From Alicyclobacillus sp. (GTDB lineage Bacteria; Bacillota; Bacilli; Alicyclobacillales; Alicyclobacillaceae), in contig NZ_JAIMAV010000001.1 in the NCBI RefSeq assembly GCF_023511815.1, positions 1 through 64,000 on the forward strand: a stretch of DNA of 64,000 nt, read 5' to 3'. A program made the translations under genes and the position numbers. Positions within the stretch are counted from its first letter, which is position 1. Every line of letters begins with the position of its first letter. The notes beneath the pieces were generated by a model, which worked only from the letters and a program-made list of their open reading frames with translations, was not told where the DNA came from and searched no databases. Positions 6,734 to 20,709 of the stretch are shown piece after piece.

Positions 6734-8127
6734 CTGAAACCGGGATTGTACGAACAGAGGTCAATGAAATCGTGAACGCACGCCTGGCGGGGTCACGGGA
6801 GGGCTTCGAGCCCAAGACGGAGCGTCTGGATGCGGCGGAATCGTCGCTGATGCTGGGCGATTACATCGGACAGCTGGTGCGCCGCGTGCTCGATACGGTC
6901 GATGGGGAGAATGCCGTCTCAGACCGCGTGGCGCTGTGCAATCGACTGATTGCGTGGCTGGCCGAGCAGGTGCATGACCCGGAGGTGATTGGTTGGCGGG
7001 TCTGCCCGGAAGCGGAAGTGCTCCTGGCGATATCCACATGTCCTATGACACGAGGCGCACGAGACTGCACGCGAAAGCTTATATTTTCCATCGCGATACC
7101 GGGTTCTCGAGCGCCTACATCGGTTCGTCCAATCTGTCGAGTGCGGCGCTGACCGCCGGACTCGAGTGGAAGAAGTTCGCCGGCCTGTTGGCGAGATCGA
7201 CCCGAGACTTCGAGAAACAGGTGCGCGAAGGCTTCCCCGACGTCCCCAGGGGGAGCTTCATCCAGCTCGAACGGCAGGCCATGGGGTGGGTGCTGGACAA
7301 CATCCGTGCTACCTCGCGCTATCCTGCGGCCTGGTTGCGGCGGCTTCGGGATTTCGAGGACGATGTGGGCGTGCCCTTGACGCTGGCCAACTTCGTGCGC
7401 CATGAGCAATTGTCTTTGCGGGCGTTTTACCGCCGCGGTCGCAGTTTCGCTCGCCTGTGTGCGGAAGCCGGGGTGCGAGCCGCATTCTCGGATCCAGATG
7501 AGCCCGTGCACACCAAGGCGCTGGTTCGGTTGGCTGGTGTGGATTCCAGGCGGTGGATTGATGTCGTGGTGACCCAGGAGGTGCTGGCGGTTCCCCAATA
7601 CAACCGGGATGGCATTGATTTTGTAGACGAACCGGTGGATCTCGGGTTTCCCTCTCCGCTTTATCTGCATTGCAGCTATACGCGCGATCAATTGTTGGCA
7701 GGGCTGGGCTTCTATACGGAGGACCGCATGCCCGGGATGCGGGAGGGGGTGCTGCATCTTGGGGATAAGAACCTGGACGGTCCTGCTCATCACCCTGAAC
7801 AAGGCGGACAAAGACTTTTCGCCGACCACCATGTATCAGGACTAGGCCATCAGCGACGTGCTCTTTCACTGGCAATCGCAGAGCACGACCTCTGCGGATT
7901 TGCCCACGGGGCAGCGCTACATCCATCACCGGGAGCAGGGCGGTCGCGTCGTGCTGTTTGTGCGGGAGTTCAAACAGGACGCGGCGGGGGCCCTGCCGTA
8001 CACGTACCTCGGGACGGCGGAGTATGTCCGCCACACGGGCTCCCGTCCCATGAGTGTGATCTGGCGGCTTCACCGTCCGCTTCCCGCTAAGCTGTGGCGG
8101 CAGACCAACAAATGGGTGGTGAGGTAA
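6734..8127 (+). pseudogene. Decayed, internally deleted copy of the PLD-DEAH helicase-DUF3427 gene
   Basis: This is a wrecked paralogue of the intact gene at 14413-17550. It begins at a CTG behind GGGGGGAGG, matching the intact TTG start, but is frameshifted within 15 codons. A first deletion at about 7029 removes roughly 320 bases and shifts frame. A second, at about 7171, joins the HKD nuclease region ([21 protein letters not shown]) directly to [13 protein letters not shown], removing some 420 codons that held the whole helicase core. A third, near 7565, removes about 57 codons. An extra G near 7780 shifts frame again and a TAG at 7843 replaces the TAC codon of the intact copy. The last 90 codons remain nearly identical. 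Confidence 0.9.
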
Positions 8128-10827: not shown

Positions 10828-11766
10828 GTGGATGTCCTTTCTCGAATTCGCGGCGGGTTGTGGGGACTGTTGGTGGCCGACGCGGTGGGGGTGCCGTACG
10901 AATTCCATGCCATGGACCATCTGCCGCCGCTGGGTCAGATTGACCTGGTGCCCCCGAGAGGATTTCAGCCGTGGCATGTCGGGGTTCCGCATGGCACTTG
11001 GTCCGACGATGGGGCGCAGGCGCTGTGTCTGGCGGATTCATTGCTGGCCAAAGGCAGGCTGGACCTCGAGGATTTCGCAAATCGTTTGATTGCCTGGCAC
11101 GATCACGGATTGTGGGCGGTTGACGGCAGGGTGTTCGATGTGGGCAACCAAACTCGAGATGCCATCTCGCGGCTGAGGGCGGGAGAATCACCGGAGCGGG
11201 CGGGATTCGTGCATCCGGAGGGGAAAGGAAACGGCGCCTTGATGCGCGTGCTGCCCTTGGCCCTCTGGCACAGGGGACTGGACGAGGAACTGATTGCGGA
11301 CGCCCACCGCCAATCGTTGGTGACGCACGGACACGTGACCAATCAGGTGTGTTGTGCATTGTACTGCCTCTGGGCTCGGCGCATGTTGGCGGGAATGGAC
11401 ACGGATGACGCCTATATGGAGGCGGTGCGTACCCTGCGTCGCCACTACGGGAGTGCGTCCGAGTATCGAACGGATCTCGAGAATACGGTGCGCCCGGACG
11501 ATGCACCGGTTGCCGATGGCAGCGGTTACGTGGTCGCCACGCTTCACGCGGCCCGACTGGCGTTGCGCGAGTCGAGCTATGAAATGGTGGTGAAGCGAGC
11601 CATTTCGTTCGGGATCGACACCGATACCAACGCCGCCGTGGCGGGCGGCCTTGCAGGCATTCGGCATGGCCTGGAGGGCATCCCTTTGCGCTGGCTGGAG
11701 GGGTTAAGAGGAAAGGAGATGGCGGAGCCGCTCGTGGAGCGCCTGGTCGGTTGGAGCGCGGGATGA
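10828..11766 (+). CDS. ADP-ribosylglycohydrolase family protein (312 aa)
   Basis: All-helical hydrolase of the ARH/DraG family. The two magnesium-binding motifs are present: GTWSDDGAQAL near residue 60 and GIDTDTNAAVAGGLAG near 262. Members remove ADP-ribose from proteins, nucleic acids or small molecules. The opening RGGLWGLLVADAVGVPYEF is also typical. The GTG start at 10828 follows GGAGAGG by nine bases. It is monocistronic between an antiporter and a convergent SRPBCC gene. No ADP-ribosyltransferase is visible in the window, so the target is unknown; housekeeping repair or a counter to a toxin are both possible. Confidence 0.9.
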   Translation: MDVLSRIRGGLWGLLVADAVGVPYEFHAMDHLPPLGQIDLVPPRGFQPWHVGVPHGTWSDDGAQALCLADSLLAKGRLDLEDFANRLIAWHDHGLWAVDGRVFDVGNQTRDAISRLRAGESPERAGFVHPEGKGNGALMRVLPLALWHRGLDEELIADAHRQSLVTHGHVTNQVCCALYCLWARRMLAGMDTDDAYMEAVRTLRRHYGSASEYRTDLENTVRPDDAPVADGSGYVVATLHAARLALRESSYEMVVKRAISFGIDTDTNAAVAGGLAGIRHGLEGIPLRWLEGLRGKEMAEPLVERLVGWSAG

Positions 11767-12382: not shown

Positions 12383-12520
12383 TCATAGGGCCAGTTGGCG
12401 GTACCGGAATGCGAATACACCCATCGCAAACAGGACCACCGCGGCGACGAGCAGAGCCGGGCAGACGAGGATGAGATTCGCGTGGCCACGCGCGATGCCC
12501 TGGGGATCACCCAGGATCAG
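12383..12520 (-). pseudogene. C-terminal fragment of an ABC-2 permease
   Basis: The minus-strand frame ends in GDPQGIARGHANLILVCPAL followed by a membrane segment and FAFRYRQLAL. This matches the last 45 residues of the intact permease at 2954-3760 (NPQGIAHGEASLAMVCPVL and LAFQRRQMAL). Everything upstream of it has been replaced by the end of the DAHP-synthase-like gene, which overlaps it by four bases. It is the leftover of a second exporter gene. Confidence 0.8.
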
Positions 12521-13689
12521 GAGGAGTGCACCACGACCCCCTCCTTCCGGCACGCCTCCTCGTGAATGAGTGCCCACAGCGACGAGGTGAACGGAGCGCT
12601 CATGCCGAGCGCGGCGCCCGTCAACCGGTAGTTCATCTGGACCTGCGCTGCCCGGGCGGATTGGCGCACGGACAGCCCGCACCGCCGCTTGAGCGCGGCA
12701 ATCTCCTCGGCAATCCGGAACCGTTTCGCCAGGTGGCCGAGGATCTGTTCGTCGAGGCGATCGATCTGCCGCCGCAGCCGCATCATCTCAAGGTTCCAGT
12801 CCACGCCCGTTTGGGCGCTCGAGCCACCCCCATCATGGGCGGTCGATCCCGCACGCGCAACCCCATCCGCATCGGTGCTCGCGGGCCCACCTGAGCCGGC
12901 GCCGGCCGATGGGATGGGGCGGGCGGCGCGCCACCCAGGGTCCGGGTTCCAAAGAATCCCGTCGGCCCCCGCGGCCAGGGCGGCCCCGGCTAGGGCGGGG
13001 ACGTGGCGATGGCTGGCGGCGCCGGACACGGGGTCCGCGACGACCGGAAGATGCGTGAGGTCCTTGAGGTGCGGGAGGGCGGCGAGATCGAGCGTTGGGT
13101 GGGCGGCATCGAACGTGCGGACGCCCCCGTCGCACAGCACCACGTTCGGATTTCCGTGGGCCACGATGTATTCGGCCGCGAGCAGCCACTCCTCCAGCGT
13201 GGCAGACGGGCCGCGCTGGAGCAGCACCGGTTTGTCGCATCGGCCCACGGCTTTGAGCAGAGGGTAGTTCTGCATCTGATGCCGGCCGATCTCGAGCATG
13301 TCGGCGTACCGGCACAGCTGTGCCACCTCCGAGGGGGAGACGGTCTCCAGCACCACCGGGATGGACGCCCGCCGCACGGCTTGCGCGGCATCAAGGACCA
13401 CGTCGGTGGGGGCGGTTCGGTCGTGCGGAGAGGGTGAGGGCGGTGTGCGGGGAATGCGGAGCAGGTGCGCGCCGAGGTCCCGGGCCATGCGGGCCGCCTC
13501 CATCCCCTCGTCCGCCGATGCAAGATGCGCGAAGGAGGCGATGATCACCGGATTTCCGCCTCCAATCGGGACGGGACCCACGCGGATCACGCTCGGGCTC
13601 GCCTGATGATGCCAGCTGACCAGGCGATAGGCCGGTGCCTTCGAAAGAGATGGGGTTTGCGATGCGACCTCATACTTGTCGCCGTTCAT
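12517..13689 (-). CDS. DAHP synthase/chorismate mutase-like fusion with degenerate active sites (390 aa)
   Basis: Residues about 45-250 follow a type I-beta DAHP synthase and residues 297-382 an AroQ-class chorismate mutase, joined by a Gly/Ala/Ser-rich linker; the usual Bacillus order is reversed. The synthase fold is readable (DMLEIGRHQMQN, KPVLLQRGPSATLEEWLLAA, LKDLTHLPVVADP), but key residues differ: GPCS is SFAH (52-55), GARN is GRHQ, LLKRG is LLQRG (Lys to Gln158), CERG is CDGG, DPSH is DPVS, and the acidic ligands near the end are missing. In the mutase half the Asp and Glu of the DPxRE motif are Gln343 and Ala347. It is probably non-catalytic, perhaps a sensor or subunit, or in early decay. 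ATG behind GGGAGAGG, downstream of T-box elements. Confidence 0.8.
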   Translation of the reverse strand: MNGDKYEVASQTPSLSKAPAYRLVSWHHQASPSVIRVGPVPIGGGNPVIIASFAHLASADEGMEAARMARDLGAHLLRIPRTPPSPSPHDRTAPTDVVLDAAQAVRRASIPVVLETVSPSEVAQLCRYADMLEIGRHQMQNYPLLKAVGRCDKPVLLQRGPSATLEEWLLAAEYIVAHGNPNVVLCDGGVRTFDAAHPTLDLAALPHLKDLTHLPVVADPVSGAASHRHVPALAGAALAAGADGILWNPDPGWRAARPIPSAGAGSGGPASTDADGVARAGSTAHDGGGSSAQTGVDWNLEMMRLRRQIDRLDEQILGHLAKRFRIAEEIAALKRRCGLSVRQSARAAQVQMNYRLTGAALGMSAPFTSSLWALIHEEACRKEGVVVHSS

Positions 13690-13766: not shown

Positions 13767-13813
13767 CAAAACGCTCGTCCTGACAGGGACGAGCGTTGCC
13801 CGCGGTACCACCC
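13767..13813 (-). promoter_or_regulatory. Second T-box expression platform (antiterminator plus terminator) without Stem I
   Basis: On the minus strand the T-box core GGGTGGTACCGCG (13813-13801) is followed by a 10-base stem, ACGCTCGTCC with GGACGAGCGT (13796-13771), and a T-rich run. The roughly 150 bases between it and the first terminator contain no AGTA/GAAG specifier loop or AGAGAG bulge, so it lacks its own codon-reading stem. It ends 75 bases before the start codon of the DAHP-synthase-like gene. Confidence 0.8.
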
Positions 13814-13967
13814 TTCTGAAAGGCACTCACCAACGCGTCCGCAGGGTCGGTGTCGACGATGGCCCCGGCGGCGGGACGGTTCGGGGGCGGGGGCCCCCGC
13901 ACCCGGATTGCCGGATGGAACATCGCCGCGGCGGGATCGTCCTGTGAGCGGGATCGTCCCGTGAAAT

Positions 13968-14309
13968 GAAAAAACCCGCCCCTGTAGGGACGAGTTGATC
14001 TCGCGGTACCACCCTGCTGGAAGGCGCATGCCTTTCGCTTCATTGGGATAACGGAAGAGGGATCTCTTCCGGCGCTGGCTACTGGCCGAGGGGGGTAAGC
14101 GCATGGCGCCGACGCCCAAGGCGCCAGCCGTACAGGATGCCGAATCGGCGAAGGCACCGTCTTCGGCTGCGCCATTCCCACCACGGGTTCACCAGGCGGC
14201 TCCGGAGTGAACTTCCATCCATGGTCCGGGCCAGTTCGCACCGACCACTGGCTCTCTGCACCGGCCGCCGGATGTACTCTCTCCTTCATCGCGTTGGCAA
14301 AGATGAATT
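13968..14309 (-). promoter_or_regulatory. T-box riboswitch, predicted Phe (UUC) specifier
   Basis: A full T-box leader on the minus strand. Stem I shows AGTA (14278-14275), the AGAGAG bulge (14257-14252) and the loop-E partner GAAG followed by TTC-A, then CTCCGGAGC. The TTC at 14211-14209 is therefore the specifier for tRNA-Phe. The antiterminator core GGGTGGTACCGCG is at 14014-14002 and a terminator hairpin with a six-T run ends near 13969. Uncharged tRNA-Phe should favour readthrough towards the aromatic-pathway gene at 12517-13689. Specifier assignment rests on my alignment to the consensus. Confidence 0.85.
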
Positions 14310-14412: not shown

Positions 14413-17400
14413 TTGAAATCCGGGTTGTACGAGCAATTGGTCAACGAGATGTTGCACAGGGAGTTGGCGGACGCACGGCCGGAGCAGGTCATCAAGGAAG
14501 CGTTGGATGCAGAGGAATCGACCCAGGTGCTGGCGGATTATGTGGCGCACGTGTTGCGGTGGGGGCTCGCCCGGATCGGCGGTGAGACGGCGTTGGCGAA
14601 ACGGATGGACGTGTGCAATCGCCTGATCGCTTGGCTCGCCCGGCAGGTGGATGACGAAACCATGCTCGACTGGGCCATCCGCCCGGAGGCGGAGATGCTC
14701 CTGGCGCTGCTGGACGAGCGAAACTGCCTGACGGGGGCGGGCATCCGCGGAAAGGACGTGATTCGTCCTCTGACGTCGCTGGCGCATGGAACCCTGTTCA
14801 CGGGCGCTGTCCATGAGCCCAACCTGGTCGGAGAATTGAAAAAGGAGATCCTGACCGCGGATCGGGTCGACATGCTGGTATCCTTCGTGAAGTGGAGCGG
14901 GCTTCGGCTGGTGATGGATGAGTTGCGCCAACTGACCCTGCGGGGAACGCTCAGGGTCATCACCACGTCGTACATGGGGGCCACGGACGCGCGGGCGGTC
15001 GAAGAACTGAGCGGCCTGCCCAACACCGAGGTCCGCATCTCATACGACACCCGGCGGACGCGACTGCATGCCAAGGCTTATATCTTCCACCGCGACACCG
15101 GATTTTCCACCGCCTACGTCGGATCGTCGAATCTCTCCAGCGCGGCGCTGACCACCGGCCTGGAGTGGAATGTGAAGGTGACCGCGCGCGAACAACCGGA
15201 CATCTTCGAGAAGGTGTCGGGGACCTTCGAGACGTACTGGCATGACCCCGAGTTCGTGCCGTACTCGGACGCGCAGCGGCCCGTGCTGATCCGGGCGCTG
15301 AAGGCGGAGCGCGGGCGACAGGAGGAGGGGCCCGACGCGTTCCTGTTTGACATTCACCCCTACGCGTATCAACGGGAGATTTTGGAGAAGCTGCAGGCGG
15401 AACGGGAGGTGGGCGGGCGGTACCGAAATCTCGTGGTGGCCGCCACCGGAACCGGAAAGACGGTGATCTCGGCGTTCGATTACCGACGGTTTCGGGAGGC
15501 GCATCCGAATCGTCCCAACCGGCTTATGTTCGTCGCGCACCGCGAGGAGATCCTGCGGCAGAGTCTGGCGTGTTTTCGCACCGTCCTGCGCGATCCCAAC
15601 TTCGGCGACCTGTTCGTCGGCGGATCGGAGCCCCGTCAGATGGATCACCTGTTCGTATCCATTCAGACATACAACGCGAGGAATTTCCCACAATTCACCG
15701 ACCCGGACTTCTACGATTTCGTCATTGTCGACGAGTTCCACCACGCCGCGGCCCCGAGCTATCGTCGGCTGCTCGAGCACGTCAGGCCGAAGGTCCTGCT
15801 CGGGCTGACCGCCACCCCGGAGCGACACGACAACCGCGACATTCTCTCGTATTTTGACAACCGGATTGCGGCTGAAATCCGGCTGCCGGAGGCGATTGAA
15901 CGGGGGTTGTTGGTCCCGTTTCACTATTTCGGAGTGTCGGATGACGTGGACCTGAGCCGGTTGCGTTGGTCCCGCGGGGGGTATGACACGGCGGAACTGG
16001 ATCGCCTATACACCGGGAATCGTCGCCGAGCCCAGCTCATTTTACAATCCGTGAAGCGCTACGTGACGGACCTTTCGTCCGTTGTCGGGCTGGGATTCTG
16101 TGTCTCGGTCGATCACGCGCGCTTCATGGCCGACTTCTTCTCTCGCAACGGGGTCCCCTCCATGGCGGTGCACGCCGATACCCCGTCCGAGACGCGGCGG
16201 GACGTGCAGCGGCAATTGATCGAAGGCGCGCTGCGGTTCGTGTTCGTGGTGGACCTGTACAACGAGGGTGTGGACATTCCCGAGGTGAACACGATCCTGT
16301 TTCTCCGGCCGACGGAGAGTTTGACCGTGTTCCTGCAGCAATTGGGCCGAGGGCTCCGGCTGTGCGAGGGCAAGGCGTGTCTGACGGTGCTGGACTTCAT
16401 CGGTCAAGCGCATCGAAGCTACCGGTTTCAGGAGAAGTTCGCCGGGTTGTTGGCGGGATCGACCCGGGATTTCGAGCGGCAGATCCGCGAAGGGTTTCCC
16501 GATGTGCCGCGGGGCAGCTTCATTCAATTGGAACGGCAGGCGATGGAGTGGGTGCTCGCCAATGTCCGCTCCGCGCAGCGCCATCGTTCGGCCTGGGTGC
16601 GGTCCATCCAATCGTTTGAAGAGGAGACGGGTAAACCGCTGACCCTGGCGAACTTCCTCCATCACGTGGGGCTGTCGCCGCGAGCGTTCTATCGTCACAG
16701 GAACAGCTTCGCCCGACTGTGCGCGGAGGCGGGGCGGCGGGATGCGTTCGTGGAACCGGACGAGGCGGTGCTCACCAAGGCGCTGGTGCGGCTGGCGGGT
16801 ATCGACTCCCGTCGATGGATTGACTTTCTGATCAGGTGCCTGTGCGAAGAGGGGTGGACGGATGAGGCGTTGTCCGAGGAGGAGGGCGCCATGCTGCGCA
16901 TGTTTCACTACACGGTGTGGCAGAAGCCGCTGGAGCATCACGGATTCCGATCCTTGGCGGACAGCGTCGCCCGGGTGAGGCGGAATCCCGTGCTGGCACG
17001 GGAGATGGTGGAGCTGCTGCGGCATCGGCGGGACGGAATTGACTTTGTGGATGAACCGGTTCACTTGGGGTTTCCGTGTCCCCTCGATCTTCACTGCAGT
17101 TACACCCGAGACCAGGCATTGGCGGGGTTGGGCTTTTACACGGAAGCGCGCATGCCCGCAATGCGGGAGGGGGTGGTGCATCTGCCGGATCGAAACCTGG
17201 ACGTCCTGTTCATCACGCTCAACAAGGCCGACAAGGATTTCTCGCCGAGCACGATGTACCAGGACTACGCCATCAGCGACGTGTTGTTTCACTGGCAATC
17301 GCAGAACGCGACGTCGCCGGATTCGCAGACGGGTCGGCGGTATATCCACCACCGGGAGCAAGGCGGCCGGGTGGTGCTCTTTGTGCGTGAGTTCAAACAC

Positions 17401-17550
17401 GATGCGGCGGGATCCCTGCCGTACACGTACCTCGGGACGGCGGAGTACGTTCGCCACTCGGGCTCGCGCCCCATGAACATCGTCTGGCGGCTGCACCGTC
17501 CGCTTCCCGCGAAGCTGTGGCGGGAGACGAACAAGTGGGTGGTGGGGTGA
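14413..17550 (+). CDS. PLD nuclease-DEAH helicase-DUF3427 protein (1045 aa)
   Basis: Multidomain protein: an N-terminal helical region (1-130), a phospholipase-D-type nuclease module with one visible HKD motif (His219, Lys221, then GSSN near 237), an SF2 helicase core with Walker A ATGTGKT at 344-350, DEFH at 440-443, LTATPERHD near 462 and motif VI QQLGRGLR at 642-649, and a C-terminal DUF3427-type region whose end ([16 protein letters not shown]) is characteristic. TTG start at 14413 behind AAAGGGGAGAG; the long in-frame extension upstream overlaps the divergent promoter and T-box and is not coding. An Mrr nuclease gene follows after 83 bases, suggesting a role in DNA restriction or antiphage defence (inference). 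A deleted paralogue lies at 6734-8127. Confidence 0.93.
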   Translation: MKSGLYEQLVNEMLHRELADARPEQVIKEALDAEESTQVLADYVAHVLRWGLARIGGETALAKRMDVCNRLIAWLARQVDDETMLDWAIRPEAEMLLALLDERNCLTGAGIRGKDVIRPLTSLAHGTLFTGAVHEPNLVGELKKEILTADRVDMLVSFVKWSGLRLVMDELRQLTLRGTLRVITTSYMGATDARAVEELSGLPNTEVRISYDTRRTRLHAKAYIFHRDTGFSTAYVGSSNLSSAALTTGLEWNVKVTAREQPDIFEKVSGTFETYWHDPEFVPYSDAQRPVLIRALKAERGRQEEGPDAFLFDIHPYAYQREILEKLQAEREVGGRYRNLVVAATGTGKTVISAFDYRRFREAHPNRPNRLMFVAHREEILRQSLACFRTVLRDPNFGDLFVGGSEPRQMDHLFVSIQTYNARNFPQFTDPDFYDFVIVDEFHHAAAPSYRRLLEHVRPKVLLGLTATPERHDNRDILSYFDNRIAAEIRLPEAIERGLLVPFHYFGVSDDVDLSRLRWSRGGYDTAELDRLYTGNRRRAQLILQSVKRYVTDLSSVVGLGFCVSVDHARFMADFFSRNGVPSMAVHADTPSETRRDVQRQLIEGALRFVFVVDLYNEGVDIPEVNTILFLRPTESLTVFLQQLGRGLRLCEGKACLTVLDFIGQAHRSYRFQEKFAGLLAGSTRDFERQIREGFPDVPRGSFIQLERQAMEWVLANVRSAQRHRSAWVRSIQSFEEETGKPLTLANFLHHVGLSPRAFYRHRNSFARLCAEAGRRDAFVEPDEAVLTKALVRLAGIDSRRWIDFLIRCLCEEGWTDEALSEEEGAMLRMFHYTVWQKPLEHHGFRSLADSVARVRRNPVLAREMVELLRHRRDGIDFVDEPVHLGFPCPLDLHCSYTRDQALAGLGFYTEARMPAMREGVVHLPDRNLDVLFITLNKADKDFSPSTMYQDYAISDVLFHWQSQNATSPDSQTGRRYIHHREQGGRVVLFVREFKHDAAGSLPYTYLGTAEYVRHSGSRPMNIVWRLHRPLPAKLWRETNKWVVG

Positions 17551-17633
17551 TGGCTTGACAAAATATCTCGAGGAAACCAGGATGATTTTTAATGGATCAA
17601 TCCACGATGTCTTCAATCTGAGGGAGAGGTTCA

Positions 17634-18545
17634 ATGGCCATCCCAGATTACCAGAGTTTGATGCTGCCCTTGATGCGCCTTGCCGCCGATGAGGACGAGC
17701 ACCGATTGAGTGAGGCGGTCGAGACCTTGGCCGCTCAATTGGGGTTGACCTTGGAAGAGCGTAATGAACGCCTTCCCAGTGGCGTTCAGCCGAAATTTGA
17801 CAATCGGGTGGGCTGGGCTCGCACCTACCTCACGAAGGCAGGCCTGCTTGAGAGCACGGGACGCGGCAAGTTTCGCATCACCATGCGAGGGAAGCAGGTG
17901 CTTCGCGGCGAACCTGCGGTTATTGATGTGCAGTTTCTCAAACAGTTCCCGGAGTTTCTCGGTTTCATTGGAAAATCACAGGACCTGGGCGAGCACCGGG
18001 GGTCCGAGAGCGATCCCGAGGTAACGAGCACACCGGAGGAGGTTCTCGCCTCCAGCTACCTAGAGTTACGGCGGTCGTTGGCGCACGACCTGTTGCAGAG
18101 GGTCAAGCAGTGCTCACCGAAGTTCTTTGAGCGACTTGTTGTCGAGCTGGTCGTTGCGATGGGATACGGTGGATCTATTGAGGACGCTGGACGCGCCATT
18201 GGTCGGTCCGGAGATGGCGGAGTGGACGGGATTATCAAGGAAGACCGATTGGGACTGGATGTGGTGTATCTTCAGGCCAAACGGTGGGAGGGCACTGTCG
18301 GACGACCGGTGGTACAGGCTTTCGCGGGGAGTTTGGAAGGACACCGTGCCAGAAAGGGTATCCTCATCACCACTTCCCAGTTCTCGTCCGATGCTCAAGA
18401 ATACGTGACACGCATCGAAAAGAAGATTGTGTTGATTGACGGCGAACATTTGGCCAATCTGATGATAGACTTCAACGTGGGTGTGACCGAGGCCGCACGG
18501 TACGTTGTCAAGCGGATTGACAACGACTATTTCGACGAAGCATGA
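17634..18545 (+). CDS. mrr: Mrr-family type IV restriction endonuclease (303 aa)
   Basis: Full-length Mrr architecture. Residues 1-90 form the N-terminal winged-helix Mrr_N domain (PDYQSLMLPLMRLAADEDEH, then a LLESTGRGKFRITMRGK wing). The C-terminal PD-(D/E)xK nuclease has LLQRVKQCSPKFFERLVVEL, Asp198 in GDGGVDGII and Gln214-Ala-Lys216 in YLQAKRWE, the catalytic triad of the family. Mrr enzymes cut DNA with methylated or otherwise modified bases. The ATG follows GAGGGAGAGG. It is read in the same direction 83 bases after the PLD-helicase gene, a pairing that suggests joint action against foreign DNA, but each could work alone. Confidence 0.95.
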   Translation: MAIPDYQSLMLPLMRLAADEDEHRLSEAVETLAAQLGLTLEERNERLPSGVQPKFDNRVGWARTYLTKAGLLESTGRGKFRITMRGKQVLRGEPAVIDVQFLKQFPEFLGFIGKSQDLGEHRGSESDPEVTSTPEEVLASSYLELRRSLAHDLLQRVKQCSPKFFERLVVELVVAMGYGGSIEDAGRAIGRSGDGGVDGIIKEDRLGLDVVYLQAKRWEGTVGRPVVQAFAGSLEGHRARKGILITTSQFSSDAQEYVTRIEKKIVLIDGEHLANLMIDFNVGVTEAARYVVKRIDNDYFDEA

Positions 18546-19694: not shown

Positions 19695-20609
19695 TCACGC
19701 CAAGAACACATGCTCGTTGTGCCATCGAAGGTAGTCGAGGGAGGGCCGGTCGCTCGTCTCAGACGGCAGTATGGTCAGCGGCCGGCCGTGCATGGCGTAA
19801 TACTCGCGACCATTCCCATAATCCTCTTTGATCCGGTGGCTGACCTCTATCCGGTAGTCTTCATTGATGGTCAGGTAACCTCGATCGAACAGCACATGCA
19901 GGTCCTTTCTCAACAGGATGCCGTTGCTGACCAAATGCGGCCCGTCCTCTGCGAAGGGCCGAATGTGGGCCGCGTCGAGCACCGGGAGTGTCTTTTCTCC
20001 GGTGATGGCACACCTCCGCTGATACGCCTCCGTCACAAGAATGCGAAATCCCCCCTGGCCGAGACGCGGACGGACAATCTGTTCCTTCCCATAGCGCTGT
20101 TCGGTCGGATCCCGCACCACGGGTGCTTGCGAAATCCGCTCCAAAACCGCTCCGTACAGCCGGCGCCCCTGCGCGTCGTCCGTGTCGTACGTCTTACCCT
20201 GAACAATGTTGGCCTTCCAATCGTCCGGAACAGGTATCCACGCTTCCCTGGGCCAAAAGAATGGCGATGCGAGAATGATACACCCAATCACGGGATCAGG
20301 TTCCCGGTGACGGTCGCTCTTGCGGTATCGGAGGATCGCGCCGAGGAACGTGTGGTGGTCTTCCATTCCGTTCTTTTGTTGGAAGGCCTCCCACGCCAGC
20401 GAGGTGGGCAGGAGCGCGTGGCGGACAAAGTACCCACCACCGGCAATGAAGTCCACCGGGGCGTGCAGTTTGAAAAGAAAGAGTTCGCCCGGTCGGATTG
20501 CGCGAAAGGCGCGGCTGCCCCCCGGTTGCCAGAAGTTCACCTCATCCGGTCTCATACTGGACAGATAGGTGTACCAGTGATTGTCGGTTACGCCGACGTA
20601 GATTCTCAT
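19695..20609 (-). CDS. HNH endonuclease with putative EVE/PUA-like N-terminal domain (304 aa)
   Basis: The C-terminal third is an HNH nuclease: FRILVTEAYQRRCAITGEKT, then DAAHIRPFAEDGPHLVSNG and LLRKDLHVLFDRGYLTI carry the His-Asn-His metal-binding core. The N-terminal 150 residues (VGVTDNHWYTYL, PVDFIAGGGYFVRH, PREAWIPVPDDW) look like the EVE/PUA-like modified-base readers found in type IV restriction enzymes; that part is a fold guess. Start is ATG at 20609, or GTG at 20618, both close to GGTGAGG. Together with Mrr and the PLD-helicase it makes a small cluster of restriction-type genes. It is convergent with the hydroxyacyl-CoA dehydrogenase. Confidence 0.88.
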   Translation of the reverse strand: MRIYVGVTDNHWYTYLSSMRPDEVNFWQPGGSRAFRAIRPGELFLFKLHAPVDFIAGGGYFVRHALLPTSLAWEAFQQKNGMEDHHTFLGAILRYRKSDRHREPDPVIGCIILASPFFWPREAWIPVPDDWKANIVQGKTYDTDDAQGRRLYGAVLERISQAPVVRDPTEQRYGKEQIVRPRLGQGGFRILVTEAYQRRCAITGEKTLPVLDAAHIRPFAEDGPHLVSNGILLRKDLHVLFDRGYLTINEDYRIEVSHRIKEDYGNGREYYAMHGRPLTILPSETSDRPSLDYLRWHNEHVFLA

Positions 20610-20709
20610 CAACCTCACCCGGCAGCGCGAAGGAAGATGAAGTGCTTGTCCTATTTATACCATGCGAGTGGGCTCACTGCCATAGCGTGACGCGGGGGCG
20701 GAGTGTTTT

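What the first reader, a model, noticed from the sequence alone, without database searches (positions are those of the whole stretch)
14413..18545. PLD-DEAH helicase-DUF3427 gene paired with an Mrr nuclease: candidate defence cassette
Seen: a 1045-residue protein with HKD nuclease motif, complete SF2 helicase motifs and DUF3427-type C-terminus, followed after 83 bases by a full-length Mrr (Asp198, Gln214-Ala-Lys216) on the same strand; an HNH nuclease lies 1.1 kb further. Known: Mrr is a type IV restriction enzyme, and PLD-helicase combinations occur in several antiphage systems. Inferred: the two act together on modified or foreign DNA.
Basis: partly seen in the sequence, partly recalled or inferred. 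Interest (0 to 1): 0.6.

Follow-up and report, generated by a model that had tools for sequence, protein, structure and literature searches.

The report
SauUSI-like and Mrr type IV restriction genes
Two bacterial genes that are predicted to cut foreign DNA carrying chemical marks sit side by side here largely by chance, whereas relatives of the larger gene are usually paired with a small nucleotide-cleaning enzyme, a partnership that deserves testing.

Summary
14413-17550 encodes a 1045-aa PLD nuclease / SF2 ATPase / DUF3427 protein and 17634-18545 a full-length Mrr. The first belongs to a described family, the ATP-dependent type IV enzymes typified by SauUSI (PADLOC mREase_IV E=1e-246; PDB 7clg E=1.7e-92 and best fold match); DUF3427 is SauUSI's SRA-fold 5-methylcytosine reader. 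So two known kinds of modification-dependent nuclease lie side by side. The pairing is not conserved: a convincing Mrr neighbours 2 of 106 loci of the window's subfamily and 0 of 56 further DUF3427 loci. The HNH gene may be a third such nuclease, but a congener has it without the pair. A decayed second SauUSI-like copy lies at 6736-8121. The adjacency test exposed another partner: a NudG/MutT-type NUDIX hydrolase within 1 kb of 32 of 106 window-subfamily loci and 47 of 56 others. E. coli NudG is a 5-methyl-dCTP pyrophosphatase, so the NUDIX may keep modified cytosine out of host DNA. The window's clade lacks it.

The parts
14413..17550 (+). [quoted passage not shown]
   Evidence: PDLC03659 1.4e-246, PDLC03658 7.8e-91; PDB 7clg 1.7e-92; Foldseek best hit 7clg over 931 columns
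14908..15240 (+). PLD-family nuclease domain (aa 166-276); HxK at 15067-15075, GSSN at aa 237-240
   Evidence: PF13091 4.6e-9; motifs
15352..16362 (+). SF2 helicase-like ATPase (ResIII aa 314-471 and Helicase_C aa 562-650), the presumed translocation motor
   Evidence: PF04851 8.8e-33, PF00271 1.8e-11
17080..17526 (+). DUF3427 = SRA-fold target recognition domain; Asp951 and Trp961 match SauUSI pocket residues Asp858 and Trp868
   Evidence: PF11907 4.4e-24; alignment; pocket residues from PMC7913695
17634..18545 (+). Mrr: winged-helix N-terminal domain plus PD-QxK nuclease, 303 aa
   Evidence: PF14338 6.4e-31, PF04471 2.5e-37; PDLC03657 4e-93; residues
19695..20618 (-). HNH endonuclease with an EVE/ASCH-like (PUA superfamily) N-terminal domain; probably a third modification-dependent nuclease but not part of the pair
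   Evidence: PF13391 6.6e-13; 6yex VcaM4I 2.9e-8; fold search; syntenic beside the HD-GYP gene in congener G001
6736..8121 (+). Decayed second copy of the SauUSI-like gene: helicase region deleted, second deletion, frame change and a TAG stop

Best explanation
[quoted passage not shown] The 1045-aa protein most likely works like SauUSI. Its DUF3427/SRA domain flips out 5-methylcytosine (or 5-hydroxymethylcytosine) in foreign DNA, this switches on the SF2 ATPase, the dimer translocates, and the paired PLD domains shred the DNA between sites. Mrr separately binds methylated DNA (m6A or m5C contexts) through its winged helix and cuts with its PD-QxK domain. The host carries no detectable C5-cytosine or HsdM-type N6-adenine methyltransferase, so its own DNA should be safe from the first enzyme. 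The adjacency is a sporadic juxtaposition of two defence genes, possibly co-transcribed, rather than a conserved two-part machine. Shown: families, domains, key residues, missing methyltransferase families, non-conservation of the pairing. Inferred: substrate, mechanism and expression.
For: PADLOC type IV models match both genes at 1e-246 and 4e-93. SauUSI crystal structure 7clg is the top sequence hit and the top fold hit. SauUSI pocket residues Asp858, Trp868, Phe841 and Ile842 correspond to Asp951, Trp961, Phe933 and Ile934, with Asp951 and Trp961 invariant in an alignment of 14. SauUSI mechanism from PMC7913695 (abstract and passages seen). The own genome (99.3% complete) has 0 PF00145 and 0 PF02384 matches, while the same searches ring in 10 and 13 of 14 control genomes. 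Non-conservation: Mrr at 2 of 106 and 0 of 56 loci, 2 of 398 phylum genomes, and no SauUSI-like gene in any of 17 loci fetched around Mrr genes elsewhere in the phylum. GC is 0.627 for the SauUSI-like gene, 0.566 for Mrr and 0.649 for the window.
Against: The same gene order and strand recur in G320, which chance alone would rarely give, although defence islands make such meetings commoner. The scan found no terminator-like site in the 83-base gap and Mrr has a good ribosome-binding site, so co-transcription is possible. The acid of the PLD motif (SauUSI Glu126) is His226 here, so catalysis is not guaranteed. The structure model has a modest pTM of 0.42. Lack of a C5 methyltransferase is not significantly tied to carrying the gene: 7 of 11 carriers lack one against 25 of 50 non-carriers, p=0.51.
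Confidence: 0.85

Rival explanations
1. A true two-gene defence cassette: the SauUSI-like motor and Mrr are co-expressed and cooperate, for example one cuts or remodels modified DNA and the other finishes it.
For: Same strand, 83-base gap with no terminator-like site between them. The same order and strand recur in G320.
Against: 2 of 106 and 0 of 56 loci. In G320 the SauUSI-like gene is split by about 3 kb of other ORFs. Neither G320 gene is the nearest relative of the window's: Mrr scores 349 bits against 444 for G173, and the SauUSI-like protein sits in another clade. GC contents differ. A single SauUSI polypeptide suffices in vitro and in vivo (PMC3874153, passages).
Confidence: 0.1
2. A decaying defence region: the pair is one surviving stage of repeated gain and loss of SauUSI-like genes at this place, with no selection for the pairing.
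For: A decayed second copy, 67-82% identical in DNA, lies about 6 kb upstream. Congeners G001 and G002 show no DNA match to the intact SauUSI-like gene or Mrr (40 of 134 and 40 of 140 candidates scored) and no DUF3427 domain. The order of neighbouring genes differs between window and congeners. G025 also has a broken extra copy.
Against: The 1045-aa and Mrr frames are intact, with motor, reader and nuclease motifs in place.
Confidence: 0.3
3. A three-gene modification-dependent island (SauUSI-like, Mrr, HNH) acting as one barrier.
For: All three look like modification-dependent nucleases. In G240 a SauUSI-like gene is followed about 0.9 kb on by a relative of the HNH.
Against: The HNH gene lies beside the HD-GYP gene in congener G001, where neither partner is found. 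It is on the opposite strand behind a metabolic gene. The ten loci fetched around other HNH relatives (L287-L296) show no Mrr and no close SauUSI-like gene; L291 has one distant helicase match at 25% identity.
Confidence: 0.05

Closest known systems
SauUSI (PDB 7clg; Xu 2011, Tumuluri 2021)
   Same: Domain order PLD nuclease, SF2 ATPase, helical coupler, DUF3427/SRA; HxK and GSSN; Asp and Trp of the m5C pocket; best sequence and fold match
   Different: Belongs to a separate subfamily (PDLC03659 819 bits against 303 for PDLC03658); an extra N-terminal stretch of about 100 aa; His226 in place of Glu126; no NUDIX neighbour
Mrr (EcoKMrr family, PDLC03657)
   Same: Mrr_N winged helix plus Mrr_cat with Asp198 and QAK
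   Different: No functional difference seen; sequence specificity unknown
VcaM4I, an EVE-HNH modification-dependent nuclease (PDB 6yex)
   Same: HNH domain matches by sequence; the N-terminal domain of the window's HNH protein matches ASCH and EVE folds
   Different: N-terminal similarity rests on a model of mean pLDDT 58.5; no sequence match there
E. coli immigration control region (mrr, mcrBC, hsd)
   Same: A place where type IV enzymes of different kinds lie together (PMC12707154, passages)
   Different: No sign of a conserved hotspot here
PADLOC candidate PDC-S07 (PDLC04899), the NUDIX partner found in related loci
   Same: All 13 NUDIX partners of alignment A3 match it, and 3 of 3 further ones
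   Different: Absent from the window; PADLOC states no function, and my library searches found none

Membership tests
SauUSI-type type IV restriction enzyme | N-terminal PLD nuclease with HxK and GSxN | tested here: met
   H219, K221, G237-S-S-N240; PF13091
SauUSI-type type IV restriction enzyme | Glu of the HxK(x4)E motif | tested here: not met
   His226 stands there and the position varies in the alignment of 14. Whether this acid is essential was not tested here, so the filing rests on the other features
SauUSI-type type IV restriction enzyme | SF2 helicase-like ATPase in the middle | tested here: met
   PF04851 and PF00271, motifs
SauUSI-type type IV restriction enzyme | C-terminal DUF3427/SRA reader with the m5C pocket | tested here: met
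   PF11907 over cut-off; Asp951, Trp961, Phe933, Ile934 align with the pocket. Tyr831 and Met829 lie outside the alignment and were not tested
SauUSI-type type IV restriction enzyme | Whole-protein homology to SauUSI | tested here: met
   7clg 1.7e-92; best fold hit
SauUSI-type type IV restriction enzyme | Cuts m5C/hm5C DNA with ATP; dimer; translocates | not testable with these tools
   Needs biochemistry
Mrr | Mrr_N plus Mrr_cat with D...QxK | tested here: met
Mrr | Restricts methylated DNA in vivo | not testable with these tools
   Needs strains
Conserved SauUSI-like/Mrr cassette | Recurrent adjacency across genomes | tested here: not met
   2 of 106 and 0 of 56 loci; 2 of 398 genomes
EVE-HNH endonuclease (for 19695-20618) | PUA-superfamily reader plus HNH nuclease | tested here: inconclusive
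   HNH met; reader fold suggested by Foldseek with ASCH and VcaM4I, TM-score by target about 0.5 for ASCH, low-confidence model

The most novel reading that the evidence does not exclude
SauUSI-family, 5-methylcytosine-dependent restriction enzymes are normally one half of a two-gene unit whose other half is a NudG-type NUDIX hydrolase. [quoted passage not shown] The window's enzyme belongs to a clade that lacks this partner; in its host no NudG-type NUDIX and no C5 methyltransferase was detected.
Probability: 0.35. Interest if true: 0.75.

Novelty: new member of a known kind. Interest (0 to 1): 0.42.

Why it matters
The window itself adds a member to a known barrier against foreign DNA and shows the Mrr neighbour to be incidental. 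The larger gain is by-product evidence that SauUSI relatives travel with a nucleotide-pool enzyme. If that enzyme removes 5-methyl-dCTP, it answers a question seldom asked: how a cell with a modification-dependent nuclease keeps salvaged or phage-made modified nucleotides out of its own DNA. It can be tested in harmless laboratory bacteria.

Tried and rejected
Rejected: (1) an SauUSI-like/Mrr cassette (2 of 106 and 0 of 56 loci). (2) The HNH gene as a third member (in G001 without the pair). (3) Mutual exclusion of C5 methyltransferases and SauUSI-like genes among relatives (7 of 11 against 25 of 50 lack one, p=0.51). (4) A mobile-element carrier: no match in viral contigs from the single protein; from the alignment, only 2 of the 80 listed viral loci match nearly the full length. 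No plasmid record reaches 60% identity for either protein. (5) The second PLD-helicase as a general partner: it occurs beside 5 of the 8 relatives that form the window's clade (L041, L042, L043, L045, L046), in 7 of the 80 genome-contig loci at high score (three of these are the same records as L041, L045 and L046), and not beside the window's gene.

Limits: the genome-contig scan returned the best 80 of at least 580, so it leans to close relatives. Six duplicate loci were dropped, 112 to 106. The 106 hold genes over 700 bits (L041-L098 and the window) or over 1200 bits (L099-L178); weaker ones were left out. The 56 further loci are 16 full-length DUF3427 places of the phylum sample and 40 that I picked, one per genus as far as I could, from the class sample; two of them (L357, L358) belong to the window's subfamily by score. 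In one locus (L341) one search took the wrong gene as the main one; considers all candidates and changes 46 to 47. The tree is a FastTree run with many open forks. The HNH profile was built from two sequences, so its misses mean little.
Full report
WHAT IS THERE. The window lies on contig C1 of a 3.01-Mb, 165-contig draft genome, 99.3% complete. Named records holding the closest relatives of the large protein are Alicyclobacillus species. At 14413-17550 is a 1045-aa frame that starts at TTG behind GGGGAGA, and 83 bases further, on the same strand, a 303-aa Mrr. Pfam gives PLDc_2, ResIII, Helicase_C and DUF3427 for the first and Mrr_N plus Mrr_cat for the second. The region also holds an intact 3-hydroxyacyl-CoA dehydrogenase gene and, on the other strand, the HNH gene.

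WHAT THE LARGE PROTEIN IS. PADLOC assigns it to type IV methyl-directed restriction enzymes (PDLC03659, E 1.4e-246) and more weakly to a second such model of 953 positions, SauUSI's own length (PDLC03658, 7.8e-91). Its best PDB sequence match is SauUSI (7clg, 1.7e-92). An AlphaFold2 model from an alignment of 14 (mean pLDDT 68.9, pTM 0.42) has 7clg as best Foldseek hit, E 2.5e-36 over 931 columns, well ahead of RadD; the global TM-scores are low (0.23 and 0.27), as the relative placing of domains in the model is unsure. In SauUSI the C-terminal domain, Pfam DUF3427, has an SRA fold that reads 5-methylcytosine; Asp858 is placed to contact the flipped base and Trp868 to stack on it (PMC7913695, abstract and passages; PMC3874153, passages). 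The alignment places Asp951 and Trp961 of the window protein at these positions, and both are invariant in the alignment of 14. An extra N-terminal stretch precedes the PLD domain and is shared by the relatives. The mechanism is therefore most likely that of SauUSI: recognition of modified cytosine, ATP-driven translocation, shredding by paired PLD domains. This step is inferred.

MRR. Full-length, with Asp198 and Gln214-Ala-Lys216; PDLC03657 E 4e-93. Its relatives on plasmids reach 57% identity. Mrr enzymes act on methylated adenine or cytosine in vivo (PMC3874153, passages; PMC12707154, passages).

HOST METHYLATION. The own genome has no match to PF00145 (C5-cytosine methyltransferases) and none to PF02384 (HsdM-type N6-adenine methyltransferases); the same searches ring in 10 and 13 of 14 control genomes. 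This fits a host that tolerates an m5C-dependent nuclease. It is not proof: among 61 genomes, 7 of 11 carriers of a full-length orthologue lack PF00145 against 25 of 50 non-carriers, Fisher p 0.51. Other methyltransferase families were not searched.

IS THE PAIRING CONSERVED? Not detectably. (a) In 398 genomes of the phylum, 47 have DUF3427 over the cut-off and 36 have Mrr_N over the cut-off; only the window and G320 have both within about 1 kb (distances read from the two tables). (b) Among 106 distinct loci with an intact or nearly intact gene of the window's subfamily, a profile of Mrr finds a convincing neighbour in two, the window and G320, and a weak one (42 bits, inside an 868-aa frame) in L106. 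(c) Among 56 further loci, 0. (d) None of 17 loci fetched around Mrr genes elsewhere in the phylum holds a SauUSI-like gene; two show frames that score 60-78 bits against the second PLD-helicase only. In G320 the SauUSI-like gene is split by about 3 kb of other frames, its Mrr (349 bits) is not the closest to the window's (G173, 444 bits), and its SauUSI-like protein sits in a distant clade. GC content differs between the two window genes, 0.627 and 0.566. I read this as two independent meetings of defence genes. Such clusters are described, for example the E. coli immigration control region (PMC12707154, passages).

THE HNH GENE. Its C-terminal half matches HNH_2 and the EVE-HNH nuclease VcaM4I, PDB 6yex, E 2.9e-8. 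The N-terminal half gave no Pfam match over cut-off. A model from an alignment of 11 (mean pLDDT 58.5, better in the N-terminal half) finds VcaM4I, ZmASCH and other PUA-superfamily entries as best PDB folds. So it too is probably a modification-dependent nuclease. In the congener G001 a 70%-identical relative stands beside the same HD-GYP gene in the same orientation, while DNA of the SauUSI-like gene and Mrr is not found in G001 or G002 and neither has DUF3427. The HNH gene is thus probably older at this place than the pair.

A DECAYED SECOND COPY. Between 6736 and 8121 lie pieces matching about aa 2-99, 201-253, 674-807, 860-930 and 915-1044 of the intact protein, 67-82% identical in DNA. 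The ATPase region (about aa 254-674) is missing, a second stretch is missing, the frame changes and a TAG interrupts the DUF3427 part. G025 also carries a broken extra copy. Repeated gain and loss of this gene seems usual.

THE PARTNER THAT IS CONSERVED. Clustering all neighbours within 5 kb of the 106 loci, the commonest is a NUDIX hydrolase of about 134 aa: 34 of 106, always on the same strand, median distance 10 bases. By six-frame profile search, 28 NUDIX hits fall in 62,039 bases of flank nearer than 300 bases and 2 in 964,843 bases between 3 and 10 kb, a density ratio of about 218. Within 1 kb the count is 32 of 106, or 30 of 86 loci with at least 1 kb on both sides. None occurs in 278 kb around Mrr genes or 186 kb around HNH genes. 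The label needs 20 changes on a tree of the 106 proteins (18 forced by starred branches; shuffled mean 27.6), so the link has been made or broken many times. In 56 further DUF3427 loci, chosen mostly one per genus and mostly outside the window's subfamily, the NUDIX lies within 1 kb in 47 and within 3 kb in 50. It lies upstream, downstream on the same strand, or convergent, usually within 40 bases. One of these enzymes (L331) scores 1279 bits against PDLC03658 and has the NUDIX directly upstream. Distances among 79 NUDIX/SauUSI pairs correlate, r 0.31, 0 of 500 permutations as high, though shared species history is not removed.

WHAT THE NUDIX MIGHT DO. All 13 members of alignment A3 match PADLOC's candidate PDC-S07 and nothing else there. 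Against the PDB, the profile scores 153 bits for 5x1x (named MutT), 126 for 2rrk and 101 for E. coli MutT. 2rrk is E. coli Orf135/NudG, listed as a 5-methyl-dCTP pyrophosphatase (PMC5389931, passages; PMC10742078, passages). A Pro-Ala-Asp near the C-terminus is shared with 2rrk and stands in 32 of 34 and 45 of 46 partners; a MutT-named structure has Asn there (4v14). That this residue discriminates cytosine from oxidised guanine is recalled, not tested, and 3r03 and 5x1x also have Asp, so it is a lead only. The hypothesis: the NUDIX removes modified dCTP from the pool so that the host does not mark its own DNA for the m5C-dependent nuclease. An alternative is that it depletes phage hydroxymethyl-dCTP; another is plain 8-oxo-dGTP sanitation. 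A MazG-like pyrophosphatase is within 5 kb of 15 of the 106 loci. I found no paper joining NUDIX with type IV or modification-dependent restriction in this sense (two searches gave nothing more, but one search listed only 5 of 411). This covers open-licence PMC only, no preprints, and the 2011 SauUSI paper is not held.

HOW THIS BEARS ON THE WINDOW. The window's protein sits in a starred clade of 9 rows, none with a NUDIX within 1 kb. The own genome holds only weak NUDIX matches to A3, best 31.8 bits. Five of the eight relatives have instead a second PLD-helicase beside the gene, which in the members scanned carries an HNH_repeat domain. The window has neither, and has Mrr.

VERDICT. Observation confirmed. 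The gene pair is two known kinds of enzyme; the proposed joint action is not supported. The locus is a new member of a known kind. The interest lies in the NUDIX link that the adjacency test brought out.

Noticed in passing
L049, L077, L117, L145 and others; L303-L358: A NudG/MutT-type NUDIX hydrolase (PADLOC PDC-S07) abuts SauUSI-family genes: 32 of 106 window-subfamily loci and 47 of 56 further DUF3427 loci within 1 kb. Function unproven; 5-methyl-dCTP removal proposed.
   Followed up: yes
L042:11584-14058, L043:5717-8200, L045:6263-8854, L046:14837-17284: A second PLD-helicase of about 820 aa with HNH_repeat instead of DUF3427 lies beside the SauUSI-like gene in several relatives of the window, often divergent.
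   Followed up: partly
window 6736-8121: Decayed second copy of the SauUSI-like gene with the ATPase region deleted.
   Followed up: yes
window 13768-14298, minus strand: A T-box leader (Rfam RF00230, 99.7 bits, 13983-14298) upstream of the gene at 12517-13689 (DAHP synthase/chorismate mutase-like by eye, not searched); a 72%-alike 57-base repeat of its 3' part at 13768-13824 suggests tandem T-boxes.
   Followed up: partly
L043:8204-8527, L049:13000-13326, L152, L157 and others: A MazG-like pyrophosphatase of about 108 aa recurs near SauUSI-like or second-helicase genes.
   Followed up: partly
window 10828-11766: ADP-ribosylglycohydrolase gene (PF03747, 2.5e-68) among metabolic genes; no link to the pair seen.
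   Followed up: no
L077:7650-13066: In G240 a NUDIX, a SauUSI-like gene, a 283-aa protein and a relative of the window's HNH protein lie in one row on one strand.
   Followed up: partly
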